Source of the DNA: Oscillatoria nigro-viridis PCC 7112
GTDB lineage: Bacteria > Cyanobacteriota > Cyanobacteriia > Cyanobacteriales > Microcoleaceae
NCBI RefSeq assembly: GCF_000317475.1
Contig: NC_019729.1
Span: 4,044,501-4,108,500 of the forward strand
Length of the DNA stretch: 64,000 bases
Reading direction: 5' to 3'
The translations under genes were made by a program, and so were the position numbers. Positions 1 to 25,907 of the stretch are shown piece after piece. The notes beneath the pieces are model-generated. The model did no database searches. It had not been told where the DNA came from and saw only the letters and a program-made list of their open reading frames with translations. Position 1 is the first letter of the stretch, and each line of letters begins with the position of its first letter.

Positions 1-1
1 A

Positions 2-253
2 CAGCCCATTGGCTGGCAAGTACCCGTACCCCCCGCCACCATGTACGTCTGGGCGAAACTGCCGGAACCTTGGGCCCAAGATTCCGTGAAATTTTGCACT
101 CAGCTAGTACAGAGTACAGGAGTCGCAGCTTCCCCCGGTGCCGGTTTCGGGAAATCAGGAGAAGGCTACGTGCGATTTGCCTTAGTCGAGTCGCCAGCAA
201 TTTTGGAAGCAGCAGTTAGAAAAATTGCTGAGTTTCTAAATCAAGGGATGTGA
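2..253 (+). CDS. C-terminal end of a class I/II PLP aminotransferase (partial)
   Basis: Only the last 83 codons are present; the gene enters from the left edge in the frame beginning at base 2. The visible part holds PVPPATMYVWAKLPEP, a stretch with ASPGAGFG, and GYVRFALVES, followed by a C-terminal helix. In fold-type I aminotransferases this is the small C-terminal domain, and the R of VRFAL is the position that normally binds the substrate alpha-carboxylate. The wording is closest to cyanobacterial LL-diaminopimelate aminotransferase-like enzymes (lysine and peptidoglycan precursor synthesis), but the PLP lysine and the specificity residues lie outside the window, so the substrate is not settled. 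A perfect hairpin follows about 60 bp after the stop. Confidence 0.75.
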   Translation, partial: QPIGWQVPVPPATMYVWAKLPEPWAQDSVKFCTQLVQSTGVAASPGAGFGKSGEGYVRFALVESPAILEAAVRKIAEFLNQGM

Positions 254-315
254 TGTGTGTCAACTTAACCCGAAACACCCTCGCGAGAATTCAGCCCACC
301 AGAATCGAGCTTTGA

Positions 316-337
316 GGCAGGGGTTAAAACCCCTGCC
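316..337. terminator. Perfect inverted repeat downstream of the aminotransferase
   Basis: GGCAGGGGTT and AACCCCTGCC form a 10-bp perfect stem with a two-base centre. It lies 63 bp after the aminotransferase stop and before the converging zinc-ribbon gene, so it could end transcripts from both sides. No clean T-tract follows directly; a T-run appears 18 bases later. It also resembles the GGGGGTTGAAACCCCC core of the 30-bp repeats near 32.7 kb, so it may be a dispersed repeat rather than a dedicated terminator. Confidence 0.4.
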
Positions 338-496
338 GGACTGGGGTTTTGACGTTTTTGGACACAGGAAGAAGGGCACGGCGTCTAAGTGCTTACCCGC
401 AGCTCAAGATGGATGCAATTGCTAAAATAGTGTGATTTCTACCTAAAGGAATAGATATTTGCACGCAGTATCTGTCACAATTTCTTTTAAGAAATG

Positions 497-895
497 TTAA
501 CGTGAGATATCTTGGGAATTACCAGTTCCGCTCACCCACTCTAAAAATCCTTGCAGTGAATTCTGTCGGAGTAGCGATTGTTCCGTAGCGGCGAGCGCAC
601 ACCCGAAAAAGACCACACTGCCCAAAATTGCAATCAGGGGCAAAGGCTTGCCCAGCCCAAAGTCCCGCTGAAGGCGAGCTAACGGTCTGCTCTCGCGCCT
701 GAGCATCTTTCCCACCGTCAGTTGTTTGAGACTAAAAGGATCGCGCACAAAATGACCGCTCCAGCTAATTACCATATGAGAATGGCAGTGGGGACAAGTG
801 AATAGTCCACTGACCATTCCGACTGGGCCTACGACGCTGGAACGGTTGCAGATCGGGCAAGTGACAGAATGAGTGTTATAGGTGGGAGCGTTCAT
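497..895 (-). CDS. Small zinc-ribbon protein with C-terminal membrane segment
   Basis: A protein of 132 residues of unknown role. The N-terminus carries CPIC and, about 20 residues later, CPHC, the usual spacing of a four-cysteine zinc ribbon. Near residues 95-115 is one hydrophobic stretch (PLPLIAILGSVVFFGCALAA) that should span the membrane, so the ribbon is probably tethered to it. The ATG at 895 was chosen because the zinc ribbon starts a few residues later; a GTG at 976 would add 27 residues with no family character. It converges on the aminotransferase and lies 127 bp downstream of surE on the same strand. Function cannot be given from sequence. Confidence 0.6.
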   Translation of the reverse strand: MNAPTYNTHSVTCPICNRSSVVGPVGMVSGLFTCPHCHSHMVISWSGHFVRDPFSLKQLTVGKMLRRESRPLARLQRDFGLGKPLPLIAILGSVVFFGCALAATEQSLLRQNSLQGFLEWVSGTGNSQDISR

Positions 896-1022
896 AACTG
901 TTTTTCTTGAGTAAAAAAAACTAACAAGTAATTGGGAGCCTGTGTTAACGCCTAAGGTATAGACCTTGAGAGGCACTTTTCCTTAATTCCTAGTTTACCG
1001 CTCCGATCGGGTCGATCGGAGC

Positions 1023-1829
1023 TCACTGCTTGGGAAAACCTTCAACTTGCCAATCCCGCAACGAGTGCAAGTCGGGAGCACAGGTGAGATTATATTGCAA
1101 AGGAGTTACGGTTATTCTGTTGTCGCGAATAGCTTGTACGTCCGTAGGAATATCATGCGGCATCGCCAAATCGGCGATTTCTTCTACATCTTCTAACAAT
1201 TCCCCAGCCAGCCAATAATAAGTTTTGCCGCGCGGATCGGTGCGCTTTTGAAATATGTCGAAATAGCGGCGAATGCCTTGACGGGCGATCGCAACTCCGG
1301 TAATTTCTGCTTGTGTGACTGCCGGTATGTTGACATTCAACAGCACCGGTTTGGGCAGTGGCTGTTTTTCCAACTGCGACAGCAAGGTGACAGCGAAATC
1401 CACTGCCGGCCCAAATTCCTGGGAAGTATAGCTCGCGAGGCTGAAAGCAATGCTGGGAATGCCTTCCATAATTCCTTCCATTGCCGCCGAAACCGTGCCC
1501 GAACAGATGATATCCGTGCCTAAATTCGGCCCGTGGTTGATACCGGAAAGGACAAAATCCGGTGGTTTGTCAAGTAAAGCCCACAAAGCGAGTTTCACGC
1601 AGTCGGCGGGAGTACCCGAACAAGCCCAAGCTTGGACTGCGGGATCAAAAATAGATTCGACAATTTCGGCGCGGATGGGTTGGTGCAAGGTAAGGCCGTG
1701 GCCGGTAGCGGAGCGCTCTCTGTCGGGACAAACAACGCTCACGTCGTGACCTGCGGCGGCGAGAGCGTTGGCGAGGCTGCGGATGCCTTGTGCAAAGATG
1801 CCGTCGTCGTTGCTAATTAAAAGTTTCAT
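1023..1829 (-). CDS. surE: 5'/3'-nucleotidase SurE
   Basis: SurE removes phosphate from nucleoside 5'- and 3'-monophosphates and short polyphosphate; it is a cytosolic, metal-dependent survival protein. The 268 residues match the family length. The metal-binding NDDG lies at residues 7-10, followed by [15 protein letters not shown], the [12 protein letters not shown] segment near 92-103 and [25 protein letters not shown] near 115-139, all hallmarks of the active site. The ATG at 1829 places [10 protein letters not shown] exactly at the family N-terminus. The gene points away from pheS; the roughly 630 bp between the two starts are almost filled by the repeat array described separately. Confidence 0.95.
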
Positions 1830-1929
1830 TGAAATTTTTATAGGCCTTATAACAATACTAAACTAGATTCAACTAGGACGATCGCTCTAACATCGAATTA
1901 CTTATTACCAATTATCCGTAAGTGCCGAA

Positions 1930-2462
1930 AATCTAAAATCTAAAATCTAAATGGCTGTAGAGCCAAATTGCGCTAAACTCAACTTGGCCCAAACTACCAT
2001 CAATCTAAAATCTAAAATCTAAAATCTAAAATCAACAAGACTGTAGAGCCAAAATTGCGCTAAACTCAACTTGGCCCAAAACTACCATCAATCTAAAATC
2101 TAAAATCTAAAATCAAAATGACTGTAGAGCCAAAATTGCGCTAAACTCAACTTGGCCCAAAACTGCCATCAATCTAAAATCTAAAATCTAAAATCAAAAA
2201 TCAAAATGACTGTAGAGCCAAAATTGCGCTAAACTCAACTTGGCCCAAAACTGCCCTCAATCTAAAATCTAAAATCAAAAATCAACAAGACTGTAGAGCC
2301 AAAATCGCGCTAAACTCAACTTGGCCCAAAACTGCCCTCAATCAAAAATCTAAAATCAAAAATCTAAAATCAACAAGACTGTAGAGCCAAAATTGCGCTA
2401 AACTCAACTTGGCCCAAAACTGCCATCAATCTAAAATCTAAAATCAAAAATCTAAAATCAAA
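1930..2462 (+). repeat. Tandem 81/88-bp array in register with the pheS start codon
   Basis: Six copies of a conserved core (ACTGTAGAGCC...GCGCTAAACTCAACTTGGCCC) begin at 1951, 2037, 2118, 2206, 2287 and 2375, spaced 86, 81, 88, 81 and 88 bp. They are separated by TCTAAAA-type heptamers, and 81 and 88 differ by exactly one heptamer. The next step of 88 bp lands on the pheS ATG at 2463. pheS shares ATGACTGT with the core and, 25 bases in, the same AAACTCAACT block, so its 5' end looks like a diverged seventh unit. In the copies at 2118 and 2206 the core opens an eight-codon frame, MTVEPKLR; three other copies have AAG instead of ATG. Confidence 0.9.
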
Positions 2463-3467
2463 ATGACTGTCCAGCTAAGCGACATTGAAACTCAACTAGA
2501 AACCCTCGGTCAAGAGTCCAAAAGTGCGATCGCCACTGCCAATACCCTCGAACAACTCGAACAGTTGCGCGTCGGCTACCTCGGCAAAAAAGGCCAACTC
2601 TCTCAAATTTTAGGCATGATGGGCAAACTGTCGCCAGACCAGCGACCCAAAGTAGGTGCGATCGCCAATACAGTCAAAGAAGCCCTGCAAGCCGATTTAG
2701 AAGACAAGCGCGCCGCCCTCCAAACAGCCCAAATCCAAGCCAAATTAGCCTCAGAAACCATCGATGTCACCATGCCGGGGATTTTTCGCCCCCAAGGCCG
2801 CGTGCACCCCTTAAACGCCGTCATAGACCGCGCTCTCGATATCTTTGTCGGCCTCGGATACACCGTCGCCAACGGCCCGGAAATGGAAACAGATTATTAC
2901 AACTTCGAGGCGCTCAACACCCCGCCAGACCACCCAGCGCGGGATATGCAAGATACATTTTACCTACCGGGAGGCGACTTGCTGCGGACTCAGACATCAT
3001 CAGTGCAAATTCGCTACATGGAACAGCACAAACCGCCGATTCGGATTGTCTCTCCCGGCCGCGTTTACCGCCGCGATACTGTCGATGCAACTCACGCCGC
3101 AGTTTTCCACCAAATTGAGCTTTTAGCAATTGATGAAGGTCTGACATTTACTGACTTGAAAGGCACAATTAAAGAGTTTTTGCGGCAAATGTTCGGGCAA
3201 GATTTGCCGATTCGTTTCCGCACGAGTTACTTTCCGTTTACGGAACCTTCTGCCGAAGTTGATTTGCAGTGGAACGGCAAATGGCTGGAAGTTTTGGGCT
3301 GCGGAACTGTCGATCCTAACGTTCTTAAAGGAGTGGGTTTAGACCCAGAAAAATATACTGGGTTTGCGGCCGGTTTTGGGGTCGAGCGGTTCGCAATGGT
3401 ACTTTATGAAATCGACGATATTCGCCGGGTTTATGCTAGCGACTTGCGATTTTTGCGGCAATTTTAA
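2463..3467 (+). CDS. pheS: Phenylalanyl-tRNA synthetase alpha subunit
   Basis: The catalytic subunit of the (alpha-beta)2 class II synthetase that charges tRNA-Phe in the cytosol. The 334 residues are full length. The first 85 residues form the tRNA-binding coiled coil. Motif 2 is seen as [27 protein letters not shown], followed by [13 protein letters not shown] and the motif 3 segment [14 protein letters not shown] near the C-terminus. The partner pheT is not nearby, as is common in cyanobacteria. The start has no Shine-Dalgarno sequence; the ATG is preceded by ATCTAAAATCAAA, the end of the heptamer-rich array, and the first 35 bases resemble the array core. Expression may therefore depend on that repeat leader, which is inference. 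Confidence 0.97.
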
Positions 3468-3573
3468 AGAATGGTTTGAGGTAGGTTCTACAAACCCTCT
3501 AGAGATTTTGCTTAACCTACACCAATTTTTCAGTTTCAAGTAAGCAGACAAGAGCGACAAAACCATAAGATAT

Positions 3574-3640
3574 GGTGGGCGGGTGAGTGCAAGTAACTCT
3601 TGCTATCCGACTTCTTGCAGGTCAAAACCCGCCCCCTCAC
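3574..3640. repeat. GGGCGGGT...AACCCGCCC hairpin repeat, copy a
   Basis: GTGGGCGGGT and AAAACCCGCCCC face each other across about 40 bases. The element lies between the convergent 3' ends of pheS and the small exported protein. Three further members occur at 23818, 39180 and 45549, always at gene 3' ends, which suggests a dispersed palindromic repeat that may also act as a bidirectional terminator. Confidence 0.55.
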
Positions 3641-3706
3641 ATCAGTTTATTCATGCCCGCTTACTTAAGTAGACAAGGCCTTTGCACTTACCTACTTATT
3701 TATTTT

Positions 3707-4150
3707 CTAATTGCCAAAAGCACCCTTGATGCTGTCAACAGCGCGCTCTACAGCATTCTTGGTATTATCTACTGCTTCCTGAGTCCGAGCTGAATCTTCC
3801 GATGCTCTTTTCTCAATTGTGGCCGAGTCTTTCTTAGCTTTGCGCTCTACAAAACTACCATCATCTGATGCTCGATCGACTTTAGCAGCATTTGTCTTGG
3901 CAGTTTCCTTAACTTTATCTTCTGTATCTCGGATGAAGTTCTTGGCTCGTCCAGCATCTTTGCTGGCTTTTTCTTTAACCCCATCGCCCGCATCTGCTGC
4001 TGCGATGTTTACAGCAGGAGAAGCCATTGCTGCGGTGTTCGAGAAAAACGCACCCTGCCAAACGAAGGCCATCGCTGACACGCAAAGCACAGTTGCAGCC
4101 ATCCAGCGGCCGACAGTCGAAAGCCGTTTCGTCAAAGAATTCAGTTTCAT
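3707..4150 (-). CDS. Exported charged, LEA-like helical protein of unknown function
   Basis: The 147-residue product starts with a basic segment (MKLNSLTKRLSTVGRW) and a hydrophobic core (MAATVLCVSAMAFVWQGAFF) ending near AAMASPA, a plausible signal peptide with cleavage after alanine. The mature part is low-complexity, rich in Lys, Asp, Glu and Ala, with degenerate 11-residue periods (KEKASKDAGRA, KVKETAKTNAA, ERKAKKDSATI), the pattern of LEA-like or YtxH-like amphipathic helices. Such proteins are usually stress-related, but nothing here fixes a function. The ATG at 4150 was preferred over the one at 4174 because it puts the charged n-region of the signal peptide at the start. The gene stands alone, converging on pheS. 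Confidence 0.6.
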   Translation of the reverse strand: MKLNSLTKRLSTVGRWMAATVLCVSAMAFVWQGAFFSNTAAMASPAVNIAAADAGDGVKEKASKDAGRAKNFIRDTEDKVKETAKTNAAKVDRASDDGSFVERKAKKDSATIEKRASEDSARTQEAVDNTKNAVERAVDSIKGAFGN

Positions 4151-4290
4151 ACAATACACGATCAGATATGACATTCTATTTCTACTCGATCGGAGCGATC
4201 GGCTGAACCGTTCTCTAGAGAGAGGTTATCCGCCGACGAACAGTTAAAAAATTTCCCTCTTTTGATAGATGGAAGCAAGGAATGTCAGTC

Positions 4291-4328
4291 AATTTTAGAT
4301 TTTAGATTTTAGATTTTAGATTTTAGAG
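4291..4328. repeat. TTTTAGA heptamer array
   Basis: About five consecutive TTTTAGA units. The surrounding 4175-4555 interval has no gene; it contains this array, a second weaker run of ATTAAAG near 4380-4400 and a long palindrome at 4407. Confidence 0.9.
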
Positions 4329-4406
4329 TTGACTCCCCAGCCGCCATTGGGAATTTTGAAATTTGGTTAGTAGATTGTAGATTAAAGATTAAAGATTAAA
4401 CAATTG

Positions 4407-4437
4407 ATATCGATTCCGGTTGCACCGGAATCGATAT
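4407..4437. terminator. 14-bp perfect inverted repeat 3' of the cyaC-type gene
   Basis: ATATCGATTCCGGT and ACCGGAATCGATAT pair perfectly around a TGC loop. The position, about 120 bp past the stop of the leftward cyclase gene, suits a transcription end, but no T-tract follows on the minus strand. It could equally be a protein-binding palindrome or repeat. Confidence 0.4.
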
Positions 4438-4555
4438 AAAACAGCCCTGGGGCGGGTGGGGTGAATGTAATTCACTCAGTTGAAATCTGCTGTATTTACG
4501 AATAGGTTGTTCCCGAAATTGTGCGTGGGATATCAACATATAATACTTATAATGA

Positions 4556-7500
4556 CTAATCACAATTTAGTAAAAAAGTCAATACAGTTTCATCAATTCC
4601 CTTTAATTTCAAAGGCTTATATTTAACAATGCGATTTTCCTCAACATAATCTGCCACCGCCGCCGAAATTAGCACCGTGTTTGGTTCCGTCACCTCTTGC
4701 AAGCGGGCGGCAATATTCACGCTCGGCCCGATCGCAGTATAATCCGATCGGTCAGGGCCGCCAAACATCCCCACCACCGCAGTACCCTGGTGAATCCCGC
4801 AGCGAAACCGCAACGGAGACACCCCATTTTCCCCAACAATTCCCTGCTCCAACCAGCCCTTGTTAAGCTCCTTGAGAGCTCGCAGCATTTGCTCAGCAGC
4901 AGCCACAGCGCGGCGTACTTGCTCGTTAGGCGTTAGTTCCTCCGGCGCGCCAAAGAAAGCCATTACCGCATCTCCAACAAACTTGTCTACCGTACCGCCG
5001 CTGTCAAAAATAGCCTTAGTCATTGCCGCCAAATATTCATTCAACAGCTCAGCTACCCGGCGCGAGCGCAGCGTATTTGCCATTTCCGTAAAACCGACAA
5101 TATCGCTAAACAAAATAGTAATCAATCGCGGTTCCGGGCGCAAATCTAGAGCCAAATCTCCAGCCGCGGCAGCCTTCACCATCGACGGCGGCAAAAATCG
5201 GCGCAGCACCGACTCAGTTAAATAACTGTTCAACTGCTGCACTCGGCGCTCGTTTTGTTTGAGAGCGATCAAATTCCGCACTTCCGCCAACAATTCGCGA
5301 TCGTTAAAAGGCTTGGACAAATAAGCATCCGCACCCCGTTCTACTCCTTCTATTCGAGTATCTTCGTCGGCTTTAGCAGTCAGCAAAATTGCCGGAGTTC
5401 CCTGCAATTCCTCATCCTCTCGAATCATCTTAATCAAATCCAAGCCAGAAATCAAAGGCATCATCAAATCCGTGATAATTAAATTAGGGCGACGTTTTTT
5501 AGCCACGGCAAATCCTTCTTGTCCGTTGCGGGCGAGCAAAACTGCAAAGCCGGCATCTCGCAGAATAGCCGACACGTAAAAGCGCAAATCGGGATTGTCG
5601 TCAACTACCAAAACCGTTCCCACTGCTGTTTCCGACCTGACAGGTTGGAGCGCCTCAAAGTTATGATTTTCAGCCTCATTTTCCGACAATTCCGCTTCCA
5701 CATCTGCCAGTTCCACCGCAGCTTTGGATGAGTGAAACTCCGCAGGTATTTCTAGTACCTGTTCCGGGGGCAAGTGAGTCGAACCGAAGTGCAGCCAAAC
5801 GGTAAAAGTCGTACCTTCGCCGTAAACTGACTCAACTGAAATTTGACCGCCGTGGAGTTCGACTAATTCTTTGACAAGTGCCAAACCTAAGCCGCTGCCT
5901 TCGTAGGAACGGCTAGCTGAACCTTCGGCTTGGTGAAACCGCTCGAATAAATAGGGAATTTGTTCGGTGCGAATGCCGATACCAGTGTCTTTTACTTGCA
6001 ACAAGCAGTGAGCGCCGGCCGATTCAACTTTCAGGGTGATAGTTCCGCCTTCTGGGGTGAATTTGACAGCATTTGACAGCAGGTTGTAAATAACTTTGTC
6101 AAATCTTTCGAGATCCAAATAAAGTAAAGGACATTCTTGCAGTTGGGTAATTAAGTGCAGTCCTTTTTTCTCGCAGTAGGCGCGGAACGACTCTGCGGTA
6201 GAGTAACAGAAACCGACTAAATCGCAGGGGCGAAAACTCGGCTGCATCCGTCCGGCATCGAGCCGCTGCAAGTCCAGCAGTTGATTTACCAAGCGCAGGA
6301 GGCGCCGGGAGTTACGCAAAGCGATTACGGCTTGTTCGTAGGGCAAGTCTTCTTGGCGCCTGCAAGCTGATTCCAGAGGGCCGATTGTGAGAGTTAGAGG
6401 CGTGCGGAACTCGTGGGAGATATTTTGGAAAAATTCGGTTTTGAGCCGATCGGCTTCCAGAAGCCGTTCTGCCTGCTGTCTGGTAGTCTGGTAGAGGCGC
6501 GACTGCTGCACGGCCAGAGCCGCTTGAGTTGCGACTATTTGAGCCAGGTCAATGTCTGAGAGGTTCCAGCGGCGGATGCTGTGATTTTGGCGCAGGGAAA
6601 TGCTGCCGATGATTTTGCCTTCCGAGAGTAAGGGAACGACTAACAGGGCGCGGGCTGGCGATCGAACTTGCAGTTCTGTAACATTTAACTCCGGGTGTTC
6701 CTCCAGATCTTCGATCGCCACCGGCTCTTTTGATACCATAACTTCCAGCAACAGCGGATTGCCCCGAATCGGCACCAAAGACTGCGGCAAAGAAGGATGG
6801 GCAAAAACCCAGCCGCGAGGGTTAGCAGCATCATCACCAGAAGCCGTCTCGTAGCCCAGAGGGTTCGCAACTACCTCTGGATTGTCCATAAAACCCTGTT
6901 CTACAGCCACGGTATCCCTATCTGTGTCGTATAGCCCCACGCATTGGACGTATTCATCATCTTCAGTCCACAGAGATAGGGCGCAGCCGTCAACTTGCAA
7001 AGCTTGGCCGAGTTGTTGAGTAATGGCTGCAAAAATATTTTGGGGATCGAGACTCGATCGAATTGCCGTAGTAATAGTATTGACTAAGGCCTCGCGCTTC
7101 GCCAGCGCCCGCACCCGTTCGTAAGCCCGGGCTTGAGACAGCGCCAAAGCCGCTTGGTCTGCCACCGTAATTACCAACTGTACCTCGTGGTCTTGCCACT
7201 GGCGCGGTCGATCGAACTGGTGCAGCGCCAAGACTGCCATCAGTTCGATTTTGTAAAACAGGGGTACGATCAAGCTCGATCGAATATTCGCAGCTTCGTA
7301 AGCCTGCTGTCGTTGCTGATTATCCCAGTTTAAAACTCGATCGTCAGTTTGGGCATCTTGAATCACCTCCACATCCAGAGTTTCCCAAACCAAATCCCGC
7401 AGCAAATCCGGGGAGAGTTCGGCAGCAGAAGCATCACCTGGCATCGCTTCCTCATCGCCCCCCAACCCTTTAGTTTCTGCCTTCTGGTAAACGAACCACT

Positions 7501-11066: not shown

Positions 11067-14000
11067 CTAGAGTTCAGAGAGATTTGGTAGAAAATCCGAG
11101 GAGCCGATCGCCCCCTTAACCCCAACCAGATTCGCTAAAACCCGATCGGTTCCTGCTACTAGCAGCAACGTACCGTTCGGAGTGGCGCTAAATTGCAACT
11201 GCTGGAAACTCAGCCCGTCGCTCAAAACAAACTTATCGACGCCTACCTCGAAGTTAATGACAGTATCGGTGCCGCCCTGACCATTCAACACAAATCGATC
11301 GCTCCCAATACCTCCAATTAAAGTATCCTCGCCCAAGCCGCCAAACAGCCAGTCATCTCCAGCGCCCCCATTGAGCAGGTCGTTATCTTTACCACCAATC
11401 AGAGTATCGCTGCCAGCATCTCCGTTGATAGTATCTTGGCCTTCATTGCCGTAGAGCAAGTCATTGCCGTCACCGCCGTTGATGCAGTCTTGCTGGTCGT
11501 TTGCCCCCACCGAGACACCCCGGTTATCAGCACGATCGCCATAGATGGTATCGTTGCCCTCGTCACCGCAGAGTTCATCGCTGCCGTCACCGCCGTAAAT
11601 CAAGTCGTCGCCCAGATCTCCGTGTATGAGGTCGTTAGCTTTGCCGCCGTAAATCAAGTCGTTGTCTTGACCGCCACTGATGGTATCGTCACCCTCATCG
11701 CCGAACAGCACATCAGCACCGATGCCACCAAAGAGCAAGTCCCGGCCGCCAACATCTTGAACTCGACTTCGAGCACCGCCGTACATGGTGTCGTCGCCGC
11801 TGTCGCCGACAAGGGTATCAGAGCCGATCTCGCCCCAAATCAGGTCATTATTTTTGCCACCCCAAACACAATCATTGCCTTTACCTGCTTGCACGGTATC
11901 ATTACCGTGGCCGCCGCCGATGATGTCGTTGCCGCTGTCCCCAAAGATTAAGTCTTGTTCGCCGAGATCCCCGATTGACTGGGAACTGCCACTGTCGCCG
12001 AGCAGAGTATCGGCTCCTTCGCCGCCGTAGAGGGTATCGGAGCCTAATTGACCGTAGATGATGTCATTGCCTTTACCTCCGTAAGCGCGATCGTTATCTT
12101 TGCCTGCAACCAGCGTATCGTTGTCTTGTTGACCGTGGAGGAAGTCGTTACCGAAGCCTCCGTACAGCAAGTCGCGTCCCTGGGAGTCGCTGGCCCTTTG
12201 GTCGCGGATGCCCCCAAACAAGCTGTCGGAGCCGATGCCACCAAACAAGGTATCGGAGCCGAGTTCGCCCCAAATCAGGTCATTTTCTTTACCTCCAAGG
12301 GCAATATCGTCACCTTTGCCGCTATGGATGGTATCCTCGCCCTCGTTGCCGTTAATTAGGTCTGCACCCTCGCCTCCGAAAATCAAATCGCGAGCATCGT
12401 CAGGACTCTGGGAGTTGTTCTGCCCGGTGTCTCCGAGAATCGTATCCGCACCTCGATCTCCAAACAGGGTGTCGGAGCCTAAGTCGCCGGCAATCCAGTC
12501 GTTCTGTTTGCCTGCAAATACGATATCGTTGCCCTCGTCTCCGTAAACAATATCGGTGCCAGTGCCCCCAAAAATCCTGTCATTGCCTTCGTTGCCGTAA
12601 ATTTCGTCCGCGCCGTCTTCACCTAAAAGCAGGTCGTTGCCTTTAAAACCGACGATTTTTTGGTTGCCTTTGGTGTCTGCGATGAAGTCATCGCCGTCGC
12701 TTCCTTTGGTGGTTTGTCCCTCTGAAAATTGTGAAATAGGCCGGACAAATCCAACTGCGGGCGGTTGCTGCGGGGGCGCAAAGTTAATTCCCGGTTTTTC
12801 AATAATGGGCGAACATTGACAGTCGGTATCTGCTTCCCCGATCGGATTTGAGATACCGGGCGCGGGTGTTGGTGTGGGTGTAGGTATGAGTGGGGGAACA
12901 GTTCCAACTGGCCTCAAGATAGCAGCAACAGTAGCGCTAGCGGGGCTGACTTTGCCGAGGTTGTCGGTGGCGGTGTAGCTGAAAGTTGCTCCGTTAAAGT
13001 CAACTGTGGCTACGAAAAATAGTTGTCCTATTTGTGCCGGAGTCAAAACTTGACCGGCTGTCACGGGTATGTCGCCGTTGACTGAATCTGATAAGAACAG
13101 GACTCCTTGGTTGGCTGGGGGGACTCTGGTGATGGTGTAAGAGACGATCGACCCATCGGGGTCACTTCCTCCCAATCCCAACACCTGCACGATGCCGTCA
13201 GTCGGAACCGTGAAGTTAACATTGTTAATCGATGGCGGTTGGTTGGAAGTCGGGGAGATAGCGGCAACTGTAGCAGTGGCGGGGCTGGTAGCGCCGCTGT
13301 TATCTGTGGCGCTGTAGCTGAAATTGGCACCGGTAAAGTCGCCGGTGGATTGGAAAAATAGTTGTCCTATTTGTTCCGGTGTCAAAACTTGACCTGGTGT
13401 CACGGCTACTCCGCCGTTGGCTGGATCTCCTAAAAACAGGATTCCTTGGGCCGCTGGCGGTAGGGTGTTGATGGTGTAAGAGGCGATCGACCCATCGGGG
13501 TCACTTCCTCCCAATCCCGGCACCCGCGCGCTGCTATTGGGGTCTACCGTGAAATTAGCATTGTTGGTTACTGGCGGTAAGTTTAGGGGATTTGGTGTGG
13601 GAGTTGCTCCTGTGGAACCGAGAGTAGCGGTAGCCAGGGGACTGGTAGCGCCGTTGCTATCTGTGGCGCTGTAGCTGAAAGTTGCTCCGGTAAAGTCGCC
13701 GGTGGATTGGAAAAATAGTTGTCCTAGCTGTTCCGGTGTCAGGACTTGACCTGGTGTCACCGGTACACCACCGTTGGCTGGATCTCCTAAAAACAGGACT
13801 CCTTGGGCCGCTGGCGGCAGGGTGTTGATGGTGTAAGAGGCGATCGACCCGTCGGGGTCGCGGCCTCCCAATCCTGTGACTAACCTGCTGCTGTTGGGCC
13901 CGAGGCTGGAGTTGGAATTGTTGGCAACTGGCGGTTGGTTGTCAGTTGGAGTTAGAGGTGTGGGCGCTATCAGTCCAGCCACTGTAGCGGTAGCGGGTGG

Positions 14001-17000
14001 ACTGATAGCGCCGCTGTTGTCTGTGGCGCTGTAGGTGAAATTGGCTCCTGTAAAGCTGCCAGTTGTTTGGAAAAATAGTTGCTGCAACTGTGCTGGAGTC
14101 AGGACTTGACCTGGTGTCACCGGTACGCCGCCGTTGGCTGGATCTCCTAAAAACAGGACGGCTTGGTCTGGTGAGGGCAGGGTGTTGATGGTGTAAGAGG
14201 CGATCGACCCGTCGGGGTCGCGACCTCCCAATCCTGTGACTAACCTGCTGCTGTTGGGTCCGAGGCTGGAGTTGGAATTGTTGGCTAATGGCGGTTGGTT
14301 GTCAGTTGGAGTTGGTGTGGGAGTTGGCGCACCCGGCCGCAAGATAGCCGCGACAGTAGCGACAGCGGGACTGGAGGCGCCGCTGTTGTCTGTGGCGCTG
14401 TAGGTGAAATTGGCTCCTGTAAAGCTGCCAGTTGTTTGGAAAAATAGTTGCTGCAACTGTGCTGGAGTCAGGACTTGACCTGGTGTCACCGGTACGCCGC
14501 CGTTGGCTGGATCTCCTAAAAACAGGACGGCTTGGTCTGGTGAGGGCAGGGTGTTGATGGTGTAAGAGGCGATCGACCCGTCGGGGTCGCTGCCTCCCAA
14601 TCCTGTGACTAACTGGCTGCTGTTGGGTCCGAGGCTGGAGTTGGCATTGTTGGCAACTGGCGGTTGGTTGTCTGTTGGAAGTATGGCCGCGACAGTAGCG
14701 ACAGCGGGACTGGAGGCGCCGCTGTTGTCTGTGGCGCTGTAGGTGAAATTGGCTCCTGTAAAGTTGCCAGTTGTTTGGAAAAATAGTTGCTGCAACTGTG
14801 CTGGAGTCAGGACTTGGCCTGGTGTCACCGGTACGCCGCCGTTGGCTGGATCTCCTAAAAACAGGACGGCTTGGTCTGGTGAGGGCAGGGTGTTGATGGT
14901 GTAAGAGGCGATCGACCCGTCGGGGTCGCTGCCTCCCAATCCTGTGACTAACTGGCTGCTGTTGGGTCCGAGGCTGGAGTTGGCATTGTTGGCAACTGGC
15001 GGTTGGTTGTCTGTTGGAGTTGGTGTGGGAGTTGGCGCACCCGGCCGCAAGATAGCCGCGACAGTAGCGACAGCGGGACTGGAGGCGCCGCTGTTGTCTG
15101 TGGCGCTGTAGGTGAAATTGGCTCCTGTAAAGTTGCCCGTCGTTTGGAAAAATAGTTGCTGCAACTGTGCTGGAGTCAGGACTTGACCTGGTGTCACCGG
15201 TACGCCGCCGTTGGCTGGATCTCCTAAAAACAGGACGGCTTGGTCTGGTGAGGGCAGGGTGTTGATGGTGTAAGAGGCGATCGACCCGTCGGGGTCGCTG
15301 CCTCCCAATCCTGTGACTAACTGGCTGCTGTTGGGTCCGAGGCTGGAGTTGGCATTGTTGGCAACTGGCGGTTGGTTGTCTGTTGGAAGTATGGCCGCGA
15401 CAGTAGCGACAGCGGGACTGGAGGCGCCGCTGTTGTCTGTGGCGCTGTAGGTGAAATTGGCTCCTGTAAAGTTGCCAGTTGTTTGGAAAAATAGTTGCTG
15501 CAACTGTGCTGGAGTCAGGACTTGGCCTGGTGTCACCGGTACGCCGCCGTTGGCTGGATCTCCTAAAAACAGGACGGCTTGGTCTGGTGAGGGCAGGGTG
15601 TTGATGGTGTAAGAGGCGATCGACCCGTCGGGGTCGCTGCCTCCCAATCCTGTGACTAACTGGCTGCTGTTGGGGCCGAGGCTGGAGTTGGCATTGTTGG
15701 CTAATGGCGGTTGGTTGTCTGTTGGAGTTGTCGGAGTCGGTGTGGGAGTTGGAGTTGTCGGAGTCGGTGTGGGAGTTGGAGTTGTCGGAGTCGGTGTGGG
15801 AGTTGGAGTTGTCGGAGTCGGTGTGGGAGTTGGAGTTGTCGGAGTCGGTGTGGGAGTTGGAGTTGTCGGAGTCGGTGTGGGAGTTGGAGTTGTCGGAGTC
15901 GGTGTGGGAGTTGGAGTTGTCGGAGTCGGTGTGGGAGTTGGTGTTGTCGGAGTCGGTGTGGGAGTTGGTGTTGTCGGAGTCGGTGTGGGAGTTGGTGTTG
16001 TGGGAGTCGGTGTGGGAGTTGGTGTTGTGGGAGTCGGTGTCAGAGGTGTGGTGAATGTAGCTTGGTTGTTGGCGGGAGTGGGGTCAGTCGTAGTTGAGGT
16101 ACTTCGGGCGGTGTTGCTGACGCTGCCGGATGCAGGTGCGATGAAGCTGACTGTGTTGGTGACGGTGGCTGTGTTGGTGACGCTGCCTGCGGCGAAGGTG
16201 ACTATACCTGTAGCCGGATCGTAGACACCGCCGTTGGAGGGGATGACTCCTGTTAAATTCGGAAGGATGGTGTCGGTAATGGTGACGTTTTCGGCTGTGC
16301 TTGGGCCGTTGTTGACTGTCGAAATTGTGTAAGTAACTCTTTCACCTGGTGCTGCTGCCGCAGTCCCGCTTTTGGTGGTAACTAGGTCGGCACTAGGTGT
16401 CAGAGGTGTGGTGAATGTAGCTTGGTTGTTGGCGGGAGTGGGGTCAGTCGTAGTTGAGGTACTTCGGGCGGTGTTGCTGACGCTGCCGGATGCAGGTGCG
16501 ATGAAGCTGACTGTGTTGGTGACGGTGGCTGTGTTGGTGACGCTGCCTGCGGCGAAGGTGACTATACCTGTAGCCGGATCGTAGACACCGCCGTTGGAGG
16601 GGATGACTCCTGTTAAATTCGGAAGGATGGTGTCGGTAATGGTGACGTTTTCGGCTGTGCTTGGGCCGTTGTTGACTGTCGAAATTGTGTAAGTAACTCT
16701 TTCACCTGGTGCTGCTGCCACAGTCCCGCTTTTGGTGGTAACTAGGTCGGCACTAGGTGTCAGAGGTGTGGTGAATGTAGCTTGGTTGTTGGCGGGAGTG
16801 GGGTCAGTCGTAGTTGAGGTACTTCGGGCGGTGTTGCTGACGCTGCCGGATGCAGGTGCGATGAAGCTGACTGTGTTGGTGACGGTGGCTGTGTTGGTGA
16901 CGCTGCCTGCGGCGAAGGTGACTATACCTGTAGCCGGATCGTAGACACCGCCGTTGGAGGGGATGACTCCTGTTAAATTCGGAAGGATGGTGTCGGTAAT

Positions 17001-18998
17001 GGTGACGTTTTCGGCTGTGCTCGGGCCGTTGTTGACTGTCGAAATTGTGTAAGTAACTCTTTCACCTGGTGCTGCTGCCGTAGTCCCGGTTTTGGTGGTA
17101 ACTAGGTCGGCAAGAGCAGCAACAATTGTAGTTGAGACTTGAGAGATGGGTTGGGAACTATTGTTGTTACCTAGATCTGGGTCGAAAGTGCTGGATGTAC
17201 TATAGGCAGTGTTAGTTAAGGGAGCTGTGACTGTTGGGGAAACTGTGGCGGTGATGGTGCGGATTTCGCTAGCACCGTTAGCCAGAGTCGGAATCGCCGG
17301 CCAGATGACCGTCCTCGTTGTGGGATTGAAAGTACCGTTGTTGTCAGTGCTGACGAAAGTTAAGCCCTCTGGGAGCGGATCTTGAATCAGGACGCTTTCG
17401 GCGCTGTTTGGCCCGTTATTTGTGGAGGTAATCGTATAGGTAATGGTGCTATTGGGTATGGCATAGAGCGGGCCTTTTTTAACAATGGAAACGTCGGCTA
17501 CAAGTGTAGGCGGATCTATACTTTCGACGATGACATTGTTAACTTCGTGAATGTTTGTATTTCCCCCTGTCGAAGCAGCAAAGCCAAATTTAAAAGTACG
17601 TGGTACTTCTCCTCCGTTTAGGGTGGCCAAATTTGATATGGTGATCGGTGTTTCGTTCGCCTCAAAGATGCCATTGCCGTTGAAGTCGAAGCCCACTGTA
17701 AGACGGTTAGGTGTTGCTGAATTCGTCGGAAATAAGGTAATTTGGACGGTTCTTTTAGCAGCAGCGCGAATGGTGGTATCTTTATTATCTATGCCAATGG
17801 CAACGGAAGTGGTACTTAAAAAATTATAAGAGGTGCTTTCGCTGCCTCTAAGTCCTATTGAATCCGGTCGCTGCCCCGGCCCGCCTACACGCCCTGCATT
17901 ATTGTTTGAATAATTGCCAAACTCGTCTAATCCGACACCTAAATAACCTCCTGAAATACCACTTGAAGCGGGAGTATTAGTATTTTGAGCATAGCCGAGA
18001 GATCCGCCGAAGCCTCCGGCTTTTGTTGGCGTAGCTGTTCCGTCAATGAGGAAAAAACTAATGCCATCGGCGCCAAGGAGGGAACCATCCGGAGCAGGGA
18101 CAGTACCTCTGTTATAGGCAAAGAAATCAAAGGTAATTTTCAGACCCTCAGTGGCAGAGATGGGGTTGTTGTAGATTACAAAAGCTGCTTGGTTAAATTC
18201 ATTTGATGTTAATCTCAAAGTACCTGTTCCGGGTGTATCGCCAGTCCCTAAAGCGGGAATAACGCCGCTGAGGTTTTGTGTACTACCTGCGGTTAAGCCT
18301 GGGTTAGTTGTAAGGGTGTTGCCAACTCCATATATCCAAGGCCCGATTACTGTTGAATTTTTAAATTCTTCAGCCGCTAAGGTAGCCAGGACTGATGTGT
18401 AGCCTTCTAGGACTTCTTTTTCAAAGGCTATTTCGGTATTTATTTGTCCTGTGGTAATTTTTAATTCCCAGTCGCCACCTAATGCTGCACTCCCTGTTAG
18501 GTTGTTGGAAGCGGCAATATTTGCTCCTGTTATTTCACTGAGTTTTTGTATGAATTTAATGCCGGATTCGCCGGCGGCTACGTTACAGCCGTAAAGCAGA
18601 ATGCTGCCAGATTCGCTAAGGGCTTTTCCCCACTGCTGCAATTGGTTGCTGTAGGTTTCTAGATTATCAATATTAAGTTCTGCCCGGCCGATTTCTACGG
18701 CTGCTTCTCGGCCGTGAGAAACTATGTGCAGACTGGTGATGCTGTTGCGCTGACCCAGAATTTCGGTGATTTGCTCGATTCCATCCCGGGTTCTATCGAG
18801 CAGGATTACTTCTGTATCGCGTTTCACTCCCCTGAGAAACTCTTGGTAGTTTTCTACTTTTGAATCCACAATCGCTAGATTTATTCGGACAGCGGTCTCT
18901 GCTTTATGGCTAGCTTGTCTCAAGATTTTAGTTTCCATATTGGTATATTTCCGTGCTTGTGTAGATGACAAATTTGACAGATTTGGGATGGTTTTCAT
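11067..18998 (-). CDS. Giant RTX calcium-binding adhesin-like protein (DUF4347, lectin, DUF11, cadherin-like repeats)
   Basis: A 2643-residue protein, probably exported by a type I secretion system because it lacks a signal peptide and ends in RTX repeats. Order: DUF4347 (about 38-200, with LHIVSHG and LLYGCNVA), an L-type-lectin-like domain (205-480), one diverged DUF11 domain (495-625), three nearly identical 120-residue DUF11 repeats (628-987), a Thr-Pro linker of about twelve TPTPTPTTP units (988-1093), eight cadherin-like repeats of about 112 residues (to about 2031), and GGxGxDxx nonapeptides (about 2090-2560) with a typical C-terminal cap. This is the plan of cyanobacterial surface or matrix proteins used in adhesion or motility. 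An ATG at 18938 is an alternative start. No secretion genes are adjacent. Confidence 0.88.
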   Translation of the reverse strand: MKTIPNLSNLSSTQARKYTNMETKILRQASHKAETAVRINLAIVDSKVENYQEFLRGVKRDTEVILLDRTRDGIEQITEILGQRNSITSLHIVSHGREAAVEIGRAELNIDNLETYSNQLQQWGKALSESGSILLYGCNVAAGESGIKFIQKLSEITGANIAASNNLTGSAALGGDWELKITTGQINTEIAFEKEVLEGYTSVLATLAAEEFKNSTVIGPWIYGVGNTLTTNPGLTAGSTQNLSGVIPALGTGDTPGTGTLRLTSNEFNQAAFVIYNNPISATEGLKITFDFFAYNRGTVPAPDGSLLGADGISFFLIDGTATPTKAGGFGGSLGYAQNTNTPASSGISGGYLGVGLDEFGNYSNNNAGRVGGPGQRPDSIGLRGSESTSYNFLSTTSVAIGIDNKDTTIRAAAKRTVQITLFPTNSATPNRLTVGFDFNGNGIFEANETPITISNLATLNGGEVPRTFKFGFAASTGGNTNIHEVNNVIVESIDPPTLVADVSIVKKGPLYAIPNSTITYTITSTNNGPNSAESVLIQDPLPEGLTFVSTDNNGTFNPTTRTVIWPAIPTLANGASEIRTITATVSPTVTAPLTNTAYSTSSTFDPDLGNNNSSQPISQVSTTIVAALADLVTTKTGTTAAAPGERVTYTISTVNNGPSTAENVTITDTILPNLTGVIPSNGGVYDPATGIVTFAAGSVTNTATVTNTVSFIAPASGSVSNTARSTSTTTDPTPANNQATFTTPLTPSADLVTTKSGTVAAAPGERVTYTISTVNNGPSTAENVTITDTILPNLTGVIPSNGGVYDPATGIVTFAAGSVTNTATVTNTVSFIAPASGSVSNTARSTSTTTDPTPANNQATFTTPLTPSADLVTTKSGTAAAAPGERVTYTISTVNNGPSTAENVTITDTILPNLTGVIPSNGGVYDPATGIVTFAAGSVTNTATVTNTVSFIAPASGSVSNTARSTSTTTDPTPANNQATFTTPLTPTPTTPTPTPTPTTPTPTPTPTTPTPTPTPTTPTPTPTPTTPTPTPTPTTPTPTPTPTTPTPTPTPTTPTPTPTPTTPTPTPTPTTPTPTPTPTTPTPTPTPTTPTDNQPPLANNANSSLGPNSSQLVTGLGGSDPDGSIASYTINTLPSPDQAVLFLGDPANGGVPVTPGQVLTPAQLQQLFFQTTGNFTGANFTYSATDNSGASSPAVATVAAILPTDNQPPVANNANSSLGPNSSQLVTGLGGSDPDGSIASYTINTLPSPDQAVLFLGDPANGGVPVTPGQVLTPAQLQQLFFQTTGNFTGANFTYSATDNSGASSPAVATVAAILRPGAPTPTPTPTDNQPPVANNANSSLGPNSSQLVTGLGGSDPDGSIASYTINTLPSPDQAVLFLGDPANGGVPVTPGQVLTPAQLQQLFFQTTGNFTGANFTYSATDNSGASSPAVATVAAILPTDNQPPVANNANSSLGPNSSQLVTGLGGSDPDGSIASYTINTLPSPDQAVLFLGDPANGGVPVTPGQVLTPAQLQQLFFQTTGSFTGANFTYSATDNSGASSPAVATVAAILRPGAPTPTPTPTDNQPPLANNSNSSLGPNSSRLVTGLGGRDPDGSIASYTINTLPSPDQAVLFLGDPANGGVPVTPGQVLTPAQLQQLFFQTTGSFTGANFTYSATDNSGAISPPATATVAGLIAPTPLTPTDNQPPVANNSNSSLGPNSSRLVTGLGGRDPDGSIASYTINTLPPAAQGVLFLGDPANGGVPVTPGQVLTPEQLGQLFFQSTGDFTGATFSYSATDSNGATSPLATATLGSTGATPTPNPLNLPPVTNNANFTVDPNSSARVPGLGGSDPDGSIASYTINTLPPAAQGILFLGDPANGGVAVTPGQVLTPEQIGQLFFQSTGDFTGANFSYSATDNSGATSPATATVAAISPTSNQPPSINNVNFTVPTDGIVQVLGLGGSDPDGSIVSYTITRVPPANQGVLFLSDSVNGDIPVTAGQVLTPAQIGQLFFVATVDFNGATFSYTATDNLGKVSPASATVAAILRPVGTVPPLIPTPTPTPAPGISNPIGEADTDCQCSPIIEKPGINFAPPQQPPAVGFVRPISQFSEGQTTKGSDGDDFIADTKGNQKIVGFKGNDLLLGEDGADEIYGNEGNDRIFGGTGTDIVYGDEGNDIVFAGKQNDWIAGDLGSDTLFGDRGADTILGDTGQNNSQSPDDARDLIFGGEGADLINGNEGEDTIHSGKGDDIALGGKENDLIWGELGSDTLFGGIGSDSLFGGIRDQRASDSQGRDLLYGGFGNDFLHGQQDNDTLVAGKDNDRAYGGKGNDIIYGQLGSDTLYGGEGADTLLGDSGSSQSIGDLGEQDLIFGDSGNDIIGGGHGNDTVQAGKGNDCVWGGKNNDLIWGEIGSDTLVGDSGDDTMYGGARSRVQDVGGRDLLFGGIGADVLFGDEGDDTISGGQDNDLIYGGKANDLIHGDLGDDLIYGGDGSDELCGDEGNDTIYGDRADNRGVSVGANDQQDCINGGDGNDLLYGNEGQDTINGDAGSDTLIGGKDNDLLNGGAGDDWLFGGLGEDTLIGGIGSDRFVLNGQGGTDTVINFEVGVDKFVLSDGLSFQQLQFSATPNGTLLLVAGTDRVLANLVGVKGAIGSSDFLPNLSEL
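12905..15720 (-). repeat. Cadherin-like coding repeats with a 708-bp super-repeat
   Basis: Eight in-frame units of about 112 codons lie inside the RTX gene. Units 1-2 and 3-4 from the N-terminal side form a near-identical pair of blocks: landmark ACCCGGCCGC occurs at 14331 and again at 15039, 708 bp apart. Units nearer the RTX end are more diverged, implying that the recent duplications were at the Thr-Pro side. Confidence 0.85.
15720..16035 (-). repeat. 27-bp minisatellite encoding TPTPTPTTP
   Basis: About twelve tandem 27-bp units inside the RTX gene. Units toward 16035 carry GTTGTGGGAGTC while most others carry GTTGTCGGAGTC, so variants are clustered, as expected for slippage expansion from one end. 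Because 27 is divisible by three, unit number can change without a frameshift. Confidence 0.9.
16038..17117 (-). repeat. Three near-identical 360-bp coding repeats (DUF11 units)
   Basis: Three consecutive 360-bp blocks inside the RTX gene differ by only a few bases (for example near 16361, 17021 and 17081). Each encodes one 120-residue DUF11 domain beginning ADLVTTK. The near identity indicates recent duplication or gene conversion. Confidence 0.92.
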
Positions 18999-24632: not shown

Positions 24633-24668
24633 AATCTAAAAAATCTAAAATCTAAAATCTAAAATCAA
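24633..24668 (+). repeat. TCTAAAA heptamers abutting the trpB start codon
   Basis: Four ATCTAAA-type units run into ATCAA and the ATG of trpB with no Shine-Dalgarno sequence between. The junction is nearly identical to that of pheS (TCTAAAATCAAA then ATGACTGTC). Confidence 0.85.
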
Positions 24669-25907
24669 ATGACTGTCACCCCCCTGCATCTCACCACGGA
24701 AACCAGCGCCCAACGCCCCGACTCCCTCGGCAGATTCGGCAAATTCGGCGGCAAATACGTCCCCGAAACCCTGATGCCGGCTTTATTTGAACTAGAAGCC
24801 GCTTTCCACAAATACCGCAGCGAACCGGAATTTCAACAGCAACTCCAACAATTGCTCAAAGATTATGTCGGCCGCCCCAGCCCTTTGTATTTTGCCGAAC
24901 GCCTCACCGAACACTACGCTAAAGCAGACGGAACTGGCCCGCAAATTTACCTCAAACGCGAAGATTTAAACCACACCGGAGCTCACAAAATCAACAACGC
25001 TTTAGCTCAAGCATTGTTAGCAAAACGCATGGGCAAAAAGCGGGTAATTGCTGAAACTGGTGCCGGTCAACACGGCGTTGCTACCGCCACAGTTTGCGCT
25101 CGTTTCGGTATAGAATGCGTTGTCTACATGGGCGTTCACGACATGGAAAGACAGGCTTTAAATGTGTTTAGAATGCGGCTGATGGGAGCCGAAGTGCGGC
25201 CGGTGGCGGCGGGTACGGGAACGCTGAAAGATGCGACTTCGGAAGCGATTCGCGACTGGGTGACAAATGTCGAAACAACTCATTACATTCTCGGTTCCGT
25301 GGCGGGCCCGCATCCTTACCCGATGATGGTGCGCGATTTCCATGCGGTAATCGGTGAAGAAACCCGCGCTCAGTGTCAGGAAAAGTGGGGTGGTTTGCCG
25401 GATATTTTATTAGCTTGCGTCGGCGGCGGTTCTAATGCAATGGGTCTTTTTCACGAGTTTGTCGGGGAAGAAACTGTCAGATTGATTGGTATTGAAGCGG
25501 CCGGCGAAGGTGTGGATACAGACAAACACGCTGCTACTTTGACTAAGGGAAGTGTGGGAGTTCTGCACGGGGCGATGAGTTATTTGCTGCAAGATAATGA
25601 AGGTCAAGTGATTGAGCCGCATTCGATTAGTGCGGGTTTGGATTATCCGGGTGTAGGGCCGGAACACAGTTATTTGAAGGATGCCGGCAGGGCTGAATAT
25701 TATAGCGTAACTGATGCAGAAGCACTGGGAGCATTTCAGCGGCTTTCGCAGTTGGAGGGGATTATTCCAGCTTTGGAAACTGCTCACGCGATCGCCTATT
25801 TAGAGACTCTGTGCCCCCAGCTAACAGGCAATCCGCGCATTGTGCTTAACTGTTCCGGACGCGGCGATAAAGACGTGAACACTGTAGCGAAGGTTCTGAA
25901 TATCTAG
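24669..25907 (+). CDS. trpB: Tryptophan synthase beta subunit
   Basis: Condenses indole with L-serine to tryptophan, in complex with TrpA; cytosolic and PLP-dependent. The 412 residues are full length. Visible are [10 protein letters not shown] near the start, [18 protein letters not shown] with the PLP-binding K107, the [10 protein letters not shown] loop containing the catalytic Glu, the phosphate-binding [10 protein letters not shown] and the C-terminal [10 protein letters not shown]. The GAGQHGVA form is the TrpB1 type that pairs with TrpA; trpA is not adjacent. The ATG at 24669 begins MTVTPLH, directly after a heptamer repeat and without a Shine-Dalgarno site, as in pheS. Confidence 0.97.

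What the first reader, a model, noticed from the sequence alone, without database searches (positions are those of the whole stretch)
1930..2500. pheS start codon is in register with a six-copy upstream tandem array
Cores start at 1951, 2037, 2118, 2206, 2287 and 2375; the next 88-bp step is exactly the pheS ATG at 2463. pheS shares ATGACTGT and, at the same 25-base offset, AAACTCAACT with the core. So the native pheS 5' end is probably the ancestor, or the product, of the array. Two units carry an eight-codon ATG frame (MTVEPKLR) in the same context as pheS and could act as decoy starts or leader peptides if transcribed.
Basis: partly seen in the sequence, partly recalled or inferred. Interest (0 to 1): 0.75.

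Follow-up and report, generated by a model that had tools for sequence, protein, structure and literature searches.

The report
Six copies of the pheS promoter
A filamentous cyanobacterium carries six tandem copies of the short control region that normally sits once in front of an essential gene (pheS), apparently multiplied by copying errors around seven-base repeats that run right up to the gene's start codon.

Summary
The core is a conserved element about 70 bp upstream of pheS, single in 25 of 28 genomes of the genus (24 clear, 1 weak) and found in 6 of 28 genomes tested outside it. It centres on a -10-like box (TAAACT, TACACT or TAAAAT) without a TTGACA-like -35, so it is most likely the native pheS promoter. 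Four close single-copy relatives share a 209-bp surE-pheS gap; here it is 633 bp, and the 424-bp excess equals exactly five extra units. So the array is a tandem amplification of the pheS promoter and leader, not parent or child of the pheS coding 5' end, which is identical over 75 nt in array-free relatives. Two other genomes have smaller amplifications. The register with the ATG fits duplications ending just inside the gene, at microhomology GACTGT; a pepP array in the same genome has the same geometry. The AAACTCAACT match is best read as coincidence. The eight-codon frames lie upstream of the predicted proximal transcription start. Wider result: AAAATCT heptads abut the pheS start in 28 of 28 genus genomes, and the starts of other genes.

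The parts
1023..1829 (-). surE, divergent neighbour
   Evidence: ORF, Pfam SurE
1928..1950 (+). left heptad tract (AAAATCT)n bounding the array; heptad-like sequence left of the core is also seen in many single-copy relatives (by eye)
1951..2036 (+). unit 1 (most distal), -10-like TAAACT at 1974-1979; 23-codon ATG frame from 1951
2037..2117 (+). unit 2, -10-like TAAACT at 2061-2066
2118..2205 (+). unit 3, -10-like TAAACT at 2142-2147; 8-codon ATG frame 2118-2144
2206..2286 (+). unit 4, -10-like TAAACT at 2230-2235; 8-codon ATG frame 2206-2232
2287..2374 (+). unit 5, -10-like TAAACT at 2311-2316; T to C change just upstream (TCGCGC)
2375..2462 (+). unit 6 (proximal, same position as the single copy of relatives); footprint TTGCGCTAAACTCAACTTGG at 2393-2412, -10-like TAAACT at 2399-2404; predicted transcription start about 2411 (inferred)
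2428..2462 (+). heptad leader running into the pheS start codon, present in 28 of 28 genus leaders examined
2463..3467 (+). pheS, phenylalanine-tRNA ligase alpha subunit, 334 aa

Best explanation
The six cores are six tandem copies of the native pheS promoter plus the start of its untranslated leader. The ancestral arrangement is: left heptads, promoter core with a -10-like TAAACT box, four or so AAAATCT heptads, pheS ATG. Because heptads flank the promoter on both sides, and because the bases after the ATG share a short stretch (GACTGT) with the left edge of the core, the segment was duplicated by slippage or unequal exchange and then expanded to six copies, mostly in steps that differ by whole heptads. 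Duplications with a right end a few bases inside pheS would leave a copied ATG in the unit, which explains the register with the start codon. Shown here: single-copy state in most relatives, the exact five-unit excess, conservation of the footprint, and smaller amplifications in two other genomes. Inferred: the slippage mechanism, that the footprint is the promoter, that the proximal copy is the main one in use, that distal copies add extra start sites with leaders up to about 480 nt, and that the effect on pheS output is small.
For: Leaders from 28 of 29 genus genomes: one clear core (at least 17/20) in 24, one weak core (15/20) in G007, more than one in G000, G020 and G009; proximal core at -70 in 17 of 28 and between -63 and -72 in 25 of 28. 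Footprint columns 0-20 are held by at least 25 of 28 genomes except columns 5 (C/G), 14 (A/G); hexamer TAAACT in 27 of 28, TACACT in 1 (copies were anchored on this motif, which favours it). Outside the genus the 16-nt motif is found at shuffle p<=0.01 in 6 of 28 genomes, at -42 to -99, with hexamers TAAACT, TACACT and TAAAAT, changes where a -10 box tolerates them. The element stays with pheS in G001, G004, G005 and G028, where a pattern for the surE start found none in 1.5 kb upstream. surE-pheS gap 209 bp in G002, G012, G018, G024, 633 bp here, difference 424 = 2375-1951. G020 has three copies, G009 two clear plus one chimeric. G018, a one-contig genome, has one copy. Same geometry at pepP in this genome: three units of about 55 bp, two starting ATGA in register with the pepP ATG.
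Against: No TTGACA-like -35 box and no TGn extended -10 stand before TAAACT. A consensus scan instead picks TTGGCC-16/17-TAAAAT, with the -10 supplied by a heptad, in 5 of 6 units (6 sites in the region against 1.3 +/- 1.3 in shuffles), so the exact promoter hexamers are unsure; either way those units carry a promoter candidate. In 22 of 28 genomes outside the genus the motif was not found above shuffles. I found no transcript data for this locus. Distal copies carry private changes at otherwise fixed positions in 4 of 8 against 5 of 28 proximal copies, one-sided p=0.086, which neither shows nor excludes decay. The pheS tree does not resolve G000 from G020, so separate origin of those two arrays rests on unit sequences only.
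Confidence: 0.78

Rival explanations
1. The array is a selected copy-number dial: the number of promoter units is changed frequently by slippage and tunes pheS (and pepP) output, a housekeeping counterpart of phase-variable promoters.
For: Copy number differs between genomes (6, 3, 2-3, 1); a second gene, pepP, has 3 units here and 2 differently spaced ones in G015; four of five distal footprints here carry no private change.
Against: No within-strain variation could be examined. In Synechocystis 1, 3 or 5 tandem Ptrc copies gave the same product yield (PMC5324202, abstract and passages seen); the same passages say repeated promoters did raise expression in E. coli. 25 of 28 genomes keep one core, and distal copies in G020 and G009 have changes at fixed positions.
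Confidence: 0.15
2. One reading: the pheS coding 5' end gave rise to the core or came from it, and the ATG frames in the units act as decoy starts or leader peptides.
For: In-register resemblance 29/60, reached by 2 of 2000 shuffles; left edge of core matches pheS bases 3-16 at 10-11 of 14 in 7 of 28 genomes, a level reached in under 0.04% of control offsets; two units carry ATGACTGT.
Against: Core footprint and pheS 5' end each exist without the shared left edge in the other 21 genomes; AAACTCAACT is coding in pheS and old; the ATG frames are not generally conserved and lie upstream of the predicted proximal start.
Confidence: 0.07
3. The conserved core is an operator or RNA leader element of pheS, not the core promoter, and the array multiplies regulator-binding sites.
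For: No recognisable -35; conservation extends upstream (AAATTGCG) and downstream (CARCTTGGC) of the hexamer.
Against: No RNA structure beyond shuffles, no Rfam match up to E=1 in window 1-6000; hexamer variants TAAACT/TACACT/TAAAAT keep T1, A2, A4, T6 as a -10 box does; the 24-nt motif is found only at pheS in this genome at up to 3 mismatches, so no regulon is apparent.
Confidence: 0.15
4. Assembly artefact: copy number mis-assembled here, or collapsed in draft relatives.
For: Many relatives are drafts or MAGs (titles, contig numbers); tandem units of 81-88 bp are collapse-prone.
Against: Units differ by substitutions and heptad number, so they are not one read copied; the main replicon here is one 7.48-Mb contig; one-contig genomes G018 (1 copy) and G020 (3 copies) already differ; four single-copy genomes share exactly 209 bp.
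Confidence: 0.04

Closest known systems
Heptameric direct repeats just upstream of start codons (TAACTGA repeats of marine Beggiatoaceae and some cyanobacteria, PMC4679880; abstract and passages seen)
   Same: Seven-base direct repeats, mostly intergenic, oriented towards and ending a few nt from a start codon, little Shine-Dalgarno character, before genes of no common function, some essential; in two Cyanothece strains indels mostly in 7-nt steps
   Different: Heptad here is AAAATCT; kept at the same gene across a genus; here the heptads also bound a promoter that has been amplified in register with the ATG
Repetitive heptanucleotides of cyanobacteria (Calothrix PCC 7601, Mazel 1990, seen only as cited in PMC4692102 passages; the name STRR is from recall)
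   Same: Tandem heptamer tracts in a filamentous cyanobacterium
   Different: Heptamer probably different (recall); to my knowledge not described as start-codon-abutting leaders or as bounding promoter arrays
Variable-number tandem repeats in promoters and leaders of phase-variable genes (recall; search listing only)
   Same: Tandem units in a control region whose number differs between genomes
   Different: Unit is a whole promoter of 81-88 bp and the gene is an essential aminoacyl-tRNA synthetase; no switching shown
Engineered tandem identical promoters (3x and 5x Ptrc in Synechocystis, PMC5324202; abstract and passages seen)
   Same: Several identical promoters in tandem before one gene in a cyanobacterium
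   Different: Man-made; gave no more product than one copy; here natural, with heptad spacers

Membership tests
Housekeeping (sigma-70 type) promoter | -10 hexamer close to TATAAT, with T1, A2 and T6 | tested here: met
   TAAACT in 27 of 28 genus leaders, TACACT in 1; TAAACT, TACACT, TAAAAT in the six outgroups with a match; TAAACT matches 4 of 6
Housekeeping (sigma-70 type) promoter | -35 hexamer close to TTGACA 16-18 nt upstream, or TGn extended -10 | tested here: not met
   No TTGACA-like block upstream of TAAACT in the 28-genome profile; the scan finds only the alternative TTGGCC-16/17-TAAAAT pair. Many real promoters lack a -35 (recall), so I claim 'works as promoter', not a textbook class
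Housekeeping (sigma-70 type) promoter | transcription starts 6-8 nt downstream of the hexamer | not testable with these tools
   no transcript data at hand
TAACTGA-type start-codon heptad repeats | direct heptamer repeats ending within several nt of a start codon | tested here: met
   pheS 28 of 28 genus leaders, last AATC 3-4 nt from ATG in 26; pepP 17 of 17 located starts, by eye
TAACTGA-type start-codon heptad repeats | the heptamer is TAACTGA | tested here: not met
   heptamer is AAAATCT
Phase-variable promoter VNTR | copy number differs among related genomes | tested here: met
   6, 3, 2-3 or 1 core
Phase-variable promoter VNTR | copy number changes within a strain and alters expression | not testable with these tools
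   one genome per species held; no expression data

The most novel reading that the evidence does not exclude
In this genus AAAATCT heptads are a shared leader module of many genes: they run into the start codon as a Shine-Dalgarno-free landing tract, and at the same time make the promoters of those genes prone to tandem amplification in register with the ATG. Heptad-led housekeeping genes such as pheS and pepP would then have naturally evolvable promoter dosage.
Probability: 0.2. Interest if true: 0.75.

Novelty: new variant of a known kind. Interest (0 to 1): 0.5.

Why it matters
If right, it is a natural six-fold promoter array in front of an essential gene, with the single-copy form still visible in sister genomes, so the birth of such arrays can be followed. 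It also points to a simple-sequence heptad that is kept at the start codon of the same genes across a genus even where the sequence upstream looks different, which raises a testable question about translation initiation without a Shine-Dalgarno sequence.

Tried and rejected
AAACTCAACT as homology: I treat it as coincidence, because in pheS it is coding and present in outgroup G030 and in the core it is AAACTCAGC in 16 of 28 genomes. RNA attenuator or structured leader: no fold better than shuffles and no Rfam match up to E=1 in window 1-6000. A regulon sharing the motif: the 24-mer with up to 3 mismatches occurs only in these six units; the shorter, looser pattern is no more frequent than its backwards control (72 against 99). 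Decay of distal copies: 4 of 8 against 5 of 28, one-sided p=0.086; the chimeric G009 copy at -204 and the weak hits in G006 and G023 were left out of that count. A published account of this array: none in the listings, which cover a held open-access library only; passages of PMC4132750 and PMC10923798 did not mention it. Naming the strain through its plasmid: no match in the plasmid collection, which may leave out the window's own genome. The size and six replicons fit Oscillatoria nigro-viridis PCC 7112, but that is recall, not a test. Six heptad-rich places chosen from clustered or repeated weak hits were checked for arrays: four (L120-L123) have tandem units over 50 bp, two (L124, L125) have heptads only.

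Full report
What is there. Between surE (minus strand, 1023-1829) and pheS (plus strand, 2463-3467; Pfam hits) lies a tandem array at 1928-2470. A unit is a core of about 52 bp followed by AAAATCT-type heptads; 81 and 88 differ by one heptad, and unit 1 (86) also lacks two bases in its core. The unit occurs nowhere else in the genome at comparable strength.

Where it came from. I collected the pheS leader from 28 of the 29 genomes of the genus; in the remaining one, G015, pheS was not found. Hits of at least 17/20 to the footprint are single in 24 of 28; G007 has only a 15/20 hit; G000 has six, G020 three, and G009 two plus a chimeric 14/20 third. Weaker second hits (14-15/20) in G003, G006, G023 and G025 I did not count as units. 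The proximal copy sits at -70 from the ATG in 17 of 28, between -63 and -72 in 25 of 28, at -103 in G014, at -118 in G007 and at -570 in G019, where other DNA of about 500 bp lies between core and heptads. The gap between the surE start and the pheS start is 209 bp in G002, G012, G018 and G024 and 633 bp here; the 424-bp excess is exactly the distance between the first and the last core. The array is therefore five extra copies added to a single-copy form, with no other net change in length. G018 (one copy) and G020 (three) are one-contig genomes, which argues against assembly as the source of the difference. The pheS gene tree does not separate G000 from G020. Their units differ in the left edge: GCTGAAGAG in two of the three G020 copies, TGTAGAG in all six here and in single-copy G024. 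This suggests separate expansion.

What the core is. Across the 28 proximal copies the stretch TTGCGCTAAACTCAGCTTGG is nearly invariant apart from columns 5 (C/G) and 14 (A/G), with hexamer TAAACT in 27 and TACACT in one, while the bases just upstream vary more (the copies were anchored on this motif). In 28 genomes outside the genus, the best 16-nt match within about 400 bp upstream of pheS reaches shuffle p<=0.01 in six (G030, G036, G038, G045, G054, G055), at -42 to -99; 22 do not reach it. Named relatives show it too, for example Oscillatoria sp. PCC 10802 at -51, 21 of 24 matches against 15 in its reversed control; two Planktothrix (L066, L073) match only at 16-17 of 24, near control level, and P. 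rubescens (L065) not at all. Hexamer variants TAAACT, TACACT and TAAAAT change only positions where a -10 box is tolerant (recall). The element stays with pheS in G001, G004, G005 and G028, where a pattern for the surE start found none in 1.5 kb upstream. I read it as the native pheS promoter. Against a textbook promoter: there is no -35 box. A scan prefers TTGGCC with a heptad TAAAAT as -10 in five of six units, so the precise hexamers remain open. Either reading makes the array a promoter array.

The register with the start codon. Every unit ends in heptads and the next one begins a fixed few bases later, as pheS does. Two units carry the pheS context AAAATCAAAATGACTGT, the other units different left edges. 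The simplest account, inferred, is that some duplications had a right end a few bases inside pheS, using GACTGT, shared with the left edge of the core, as microhomology. The same geometry is seen at a second gene in this genome: an aminopeptidase P gene (Pfam AMP_N) has three units of about 55 bp, core plus heptads, two of them beginning ATGA in register with the gene's ATG. In G015 the same gene has a differently spaced duplication that also carries heptads plus GAATGA. In G009, G006 and G023 the pheS core is itself preceded by heptads plus ATGA.

The resemblance to the pheS coding end. In register it is 29/60 here, above shuffles (2 of 2000). It has two parts. AAACTCAACT is coding in pheS (E-T-Q-L), is present in outgroup G030, and does not track the core, so I take it as coincidence. 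The left edge of the core matches pheS bases 3-16 at 10-11 of 14 in seven genomes (G000, G002, G012, G013, G018, G019, G024) and at 1-9 in the other 21; at control offsets 10 or more is reached in under 0.04%. The seven lie within one 15-genome clade of the pheS tree. Six of them are single-copy, so this part predates the array; it may be the scar of an older duplication, or convergence. The seven are related and are not seven independent events.

The small frames. The two 8-codon frames are real, and their stop TAA is the first half of the TAAACT box. If the promoter reading is right, a transcript from the proximal copy or from their own unit would not contain them. Single-copy G013 has the same ATG context by its core; in the other leaders I saw no such frame at that place, but I made no systematic count.

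Does the array do anything? Not shown. Distal copies have private changes at fixed positions in 4 of 8 against 5 of 28 proximal ones, one-sided p=0.086. In Synechocystis, three or five tandem Ptrc copies gave no more product than one (PMC5324202; abstract and passages seen). My expectation is a small effect on pheS output.

The wider pattern. Heptads run into the pheS start codon in 28 of 28 genus leaders and 0 of 3 outgroup leaders tested. For pepP, 18 of 29 genomes gave a strong match; the start was located in 17 of these (not in G014), and heptads abut it in 17 of 17 by eye. In 11 of those 17 no exact TTAATATTA core lies within 260 bp upstream (G012 had only 142 bp), yet the heptads are there. 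In this genome the pattern AAAATCTAAAATC followed within 12 nt by ATG occurs 239 times (backwards control 90), against 95 for the opposite sense (backwards control 53) (overlapping matches counted, and the pheS array adds to both). Of 21 distinct sites among the first 30 loci returned, 14 start a frame of at least 100 aa, against 15.5% of all 1303 ATGs in the window; this control is rough. In the window itself the picture is weaker: of 8 heptad-then-ATG sites, pheS and a 412-aa frame at 24669 are long, three are units of this array, and three have frames of 16 codons or fewer. Heptamer repeats abutting start codons are known for TAACTGA in marine Beggiatoaceae and a few cyanobacteria (PMC4679880; abstract and passages seen), so this is a variant of a known kind.

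Noticed in passing
L121 (G000:C1:5716500-5717600), 473-632: Three units of about 55 bp (core plus heptads) directly upstream of a pepP-like gene, two of them carrying ATGA in register with the gene's start codon.
   Followed up: yes
window 24640-25907: A trpB-like gene (Pfam PALP; the name trpB is from recall) also has heptads running into its start, and begins ATGACTGTC like pheS.
   Followed up: partly
L120 (G000:C1:816800-818400), 605-981: A 142-bp x 2.6 array with heptads ends 54 bp upstream of an ORF start at 1035.
   Followed up: partly
L179 1380-1525 and L185: Heptads followed by ATGACT where no long frame follows; L179 also has a 61-bp tandem unit. The heptad end and ATGAC may spread together.
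   Followed up: partly
L126 (G019:C93:11000-14500): About 500 bp of other DNA lies between the pheS promoter core and the heptad leader, a natural test of which part is needed.
   Followed up: no
L030 (G009), L025 (G006), L032 (G023): Copies that look chimeric: a surE-side TAAACTAAATTCA-like stretch joined to the 3' half of the pheS core.
   Followed up: partly
window 12917-17112: Large tandem repeats (339-369-bp units, 27-bp x 12, 360-bp x 3); whether they are coding was not checked.
   Followed up: no
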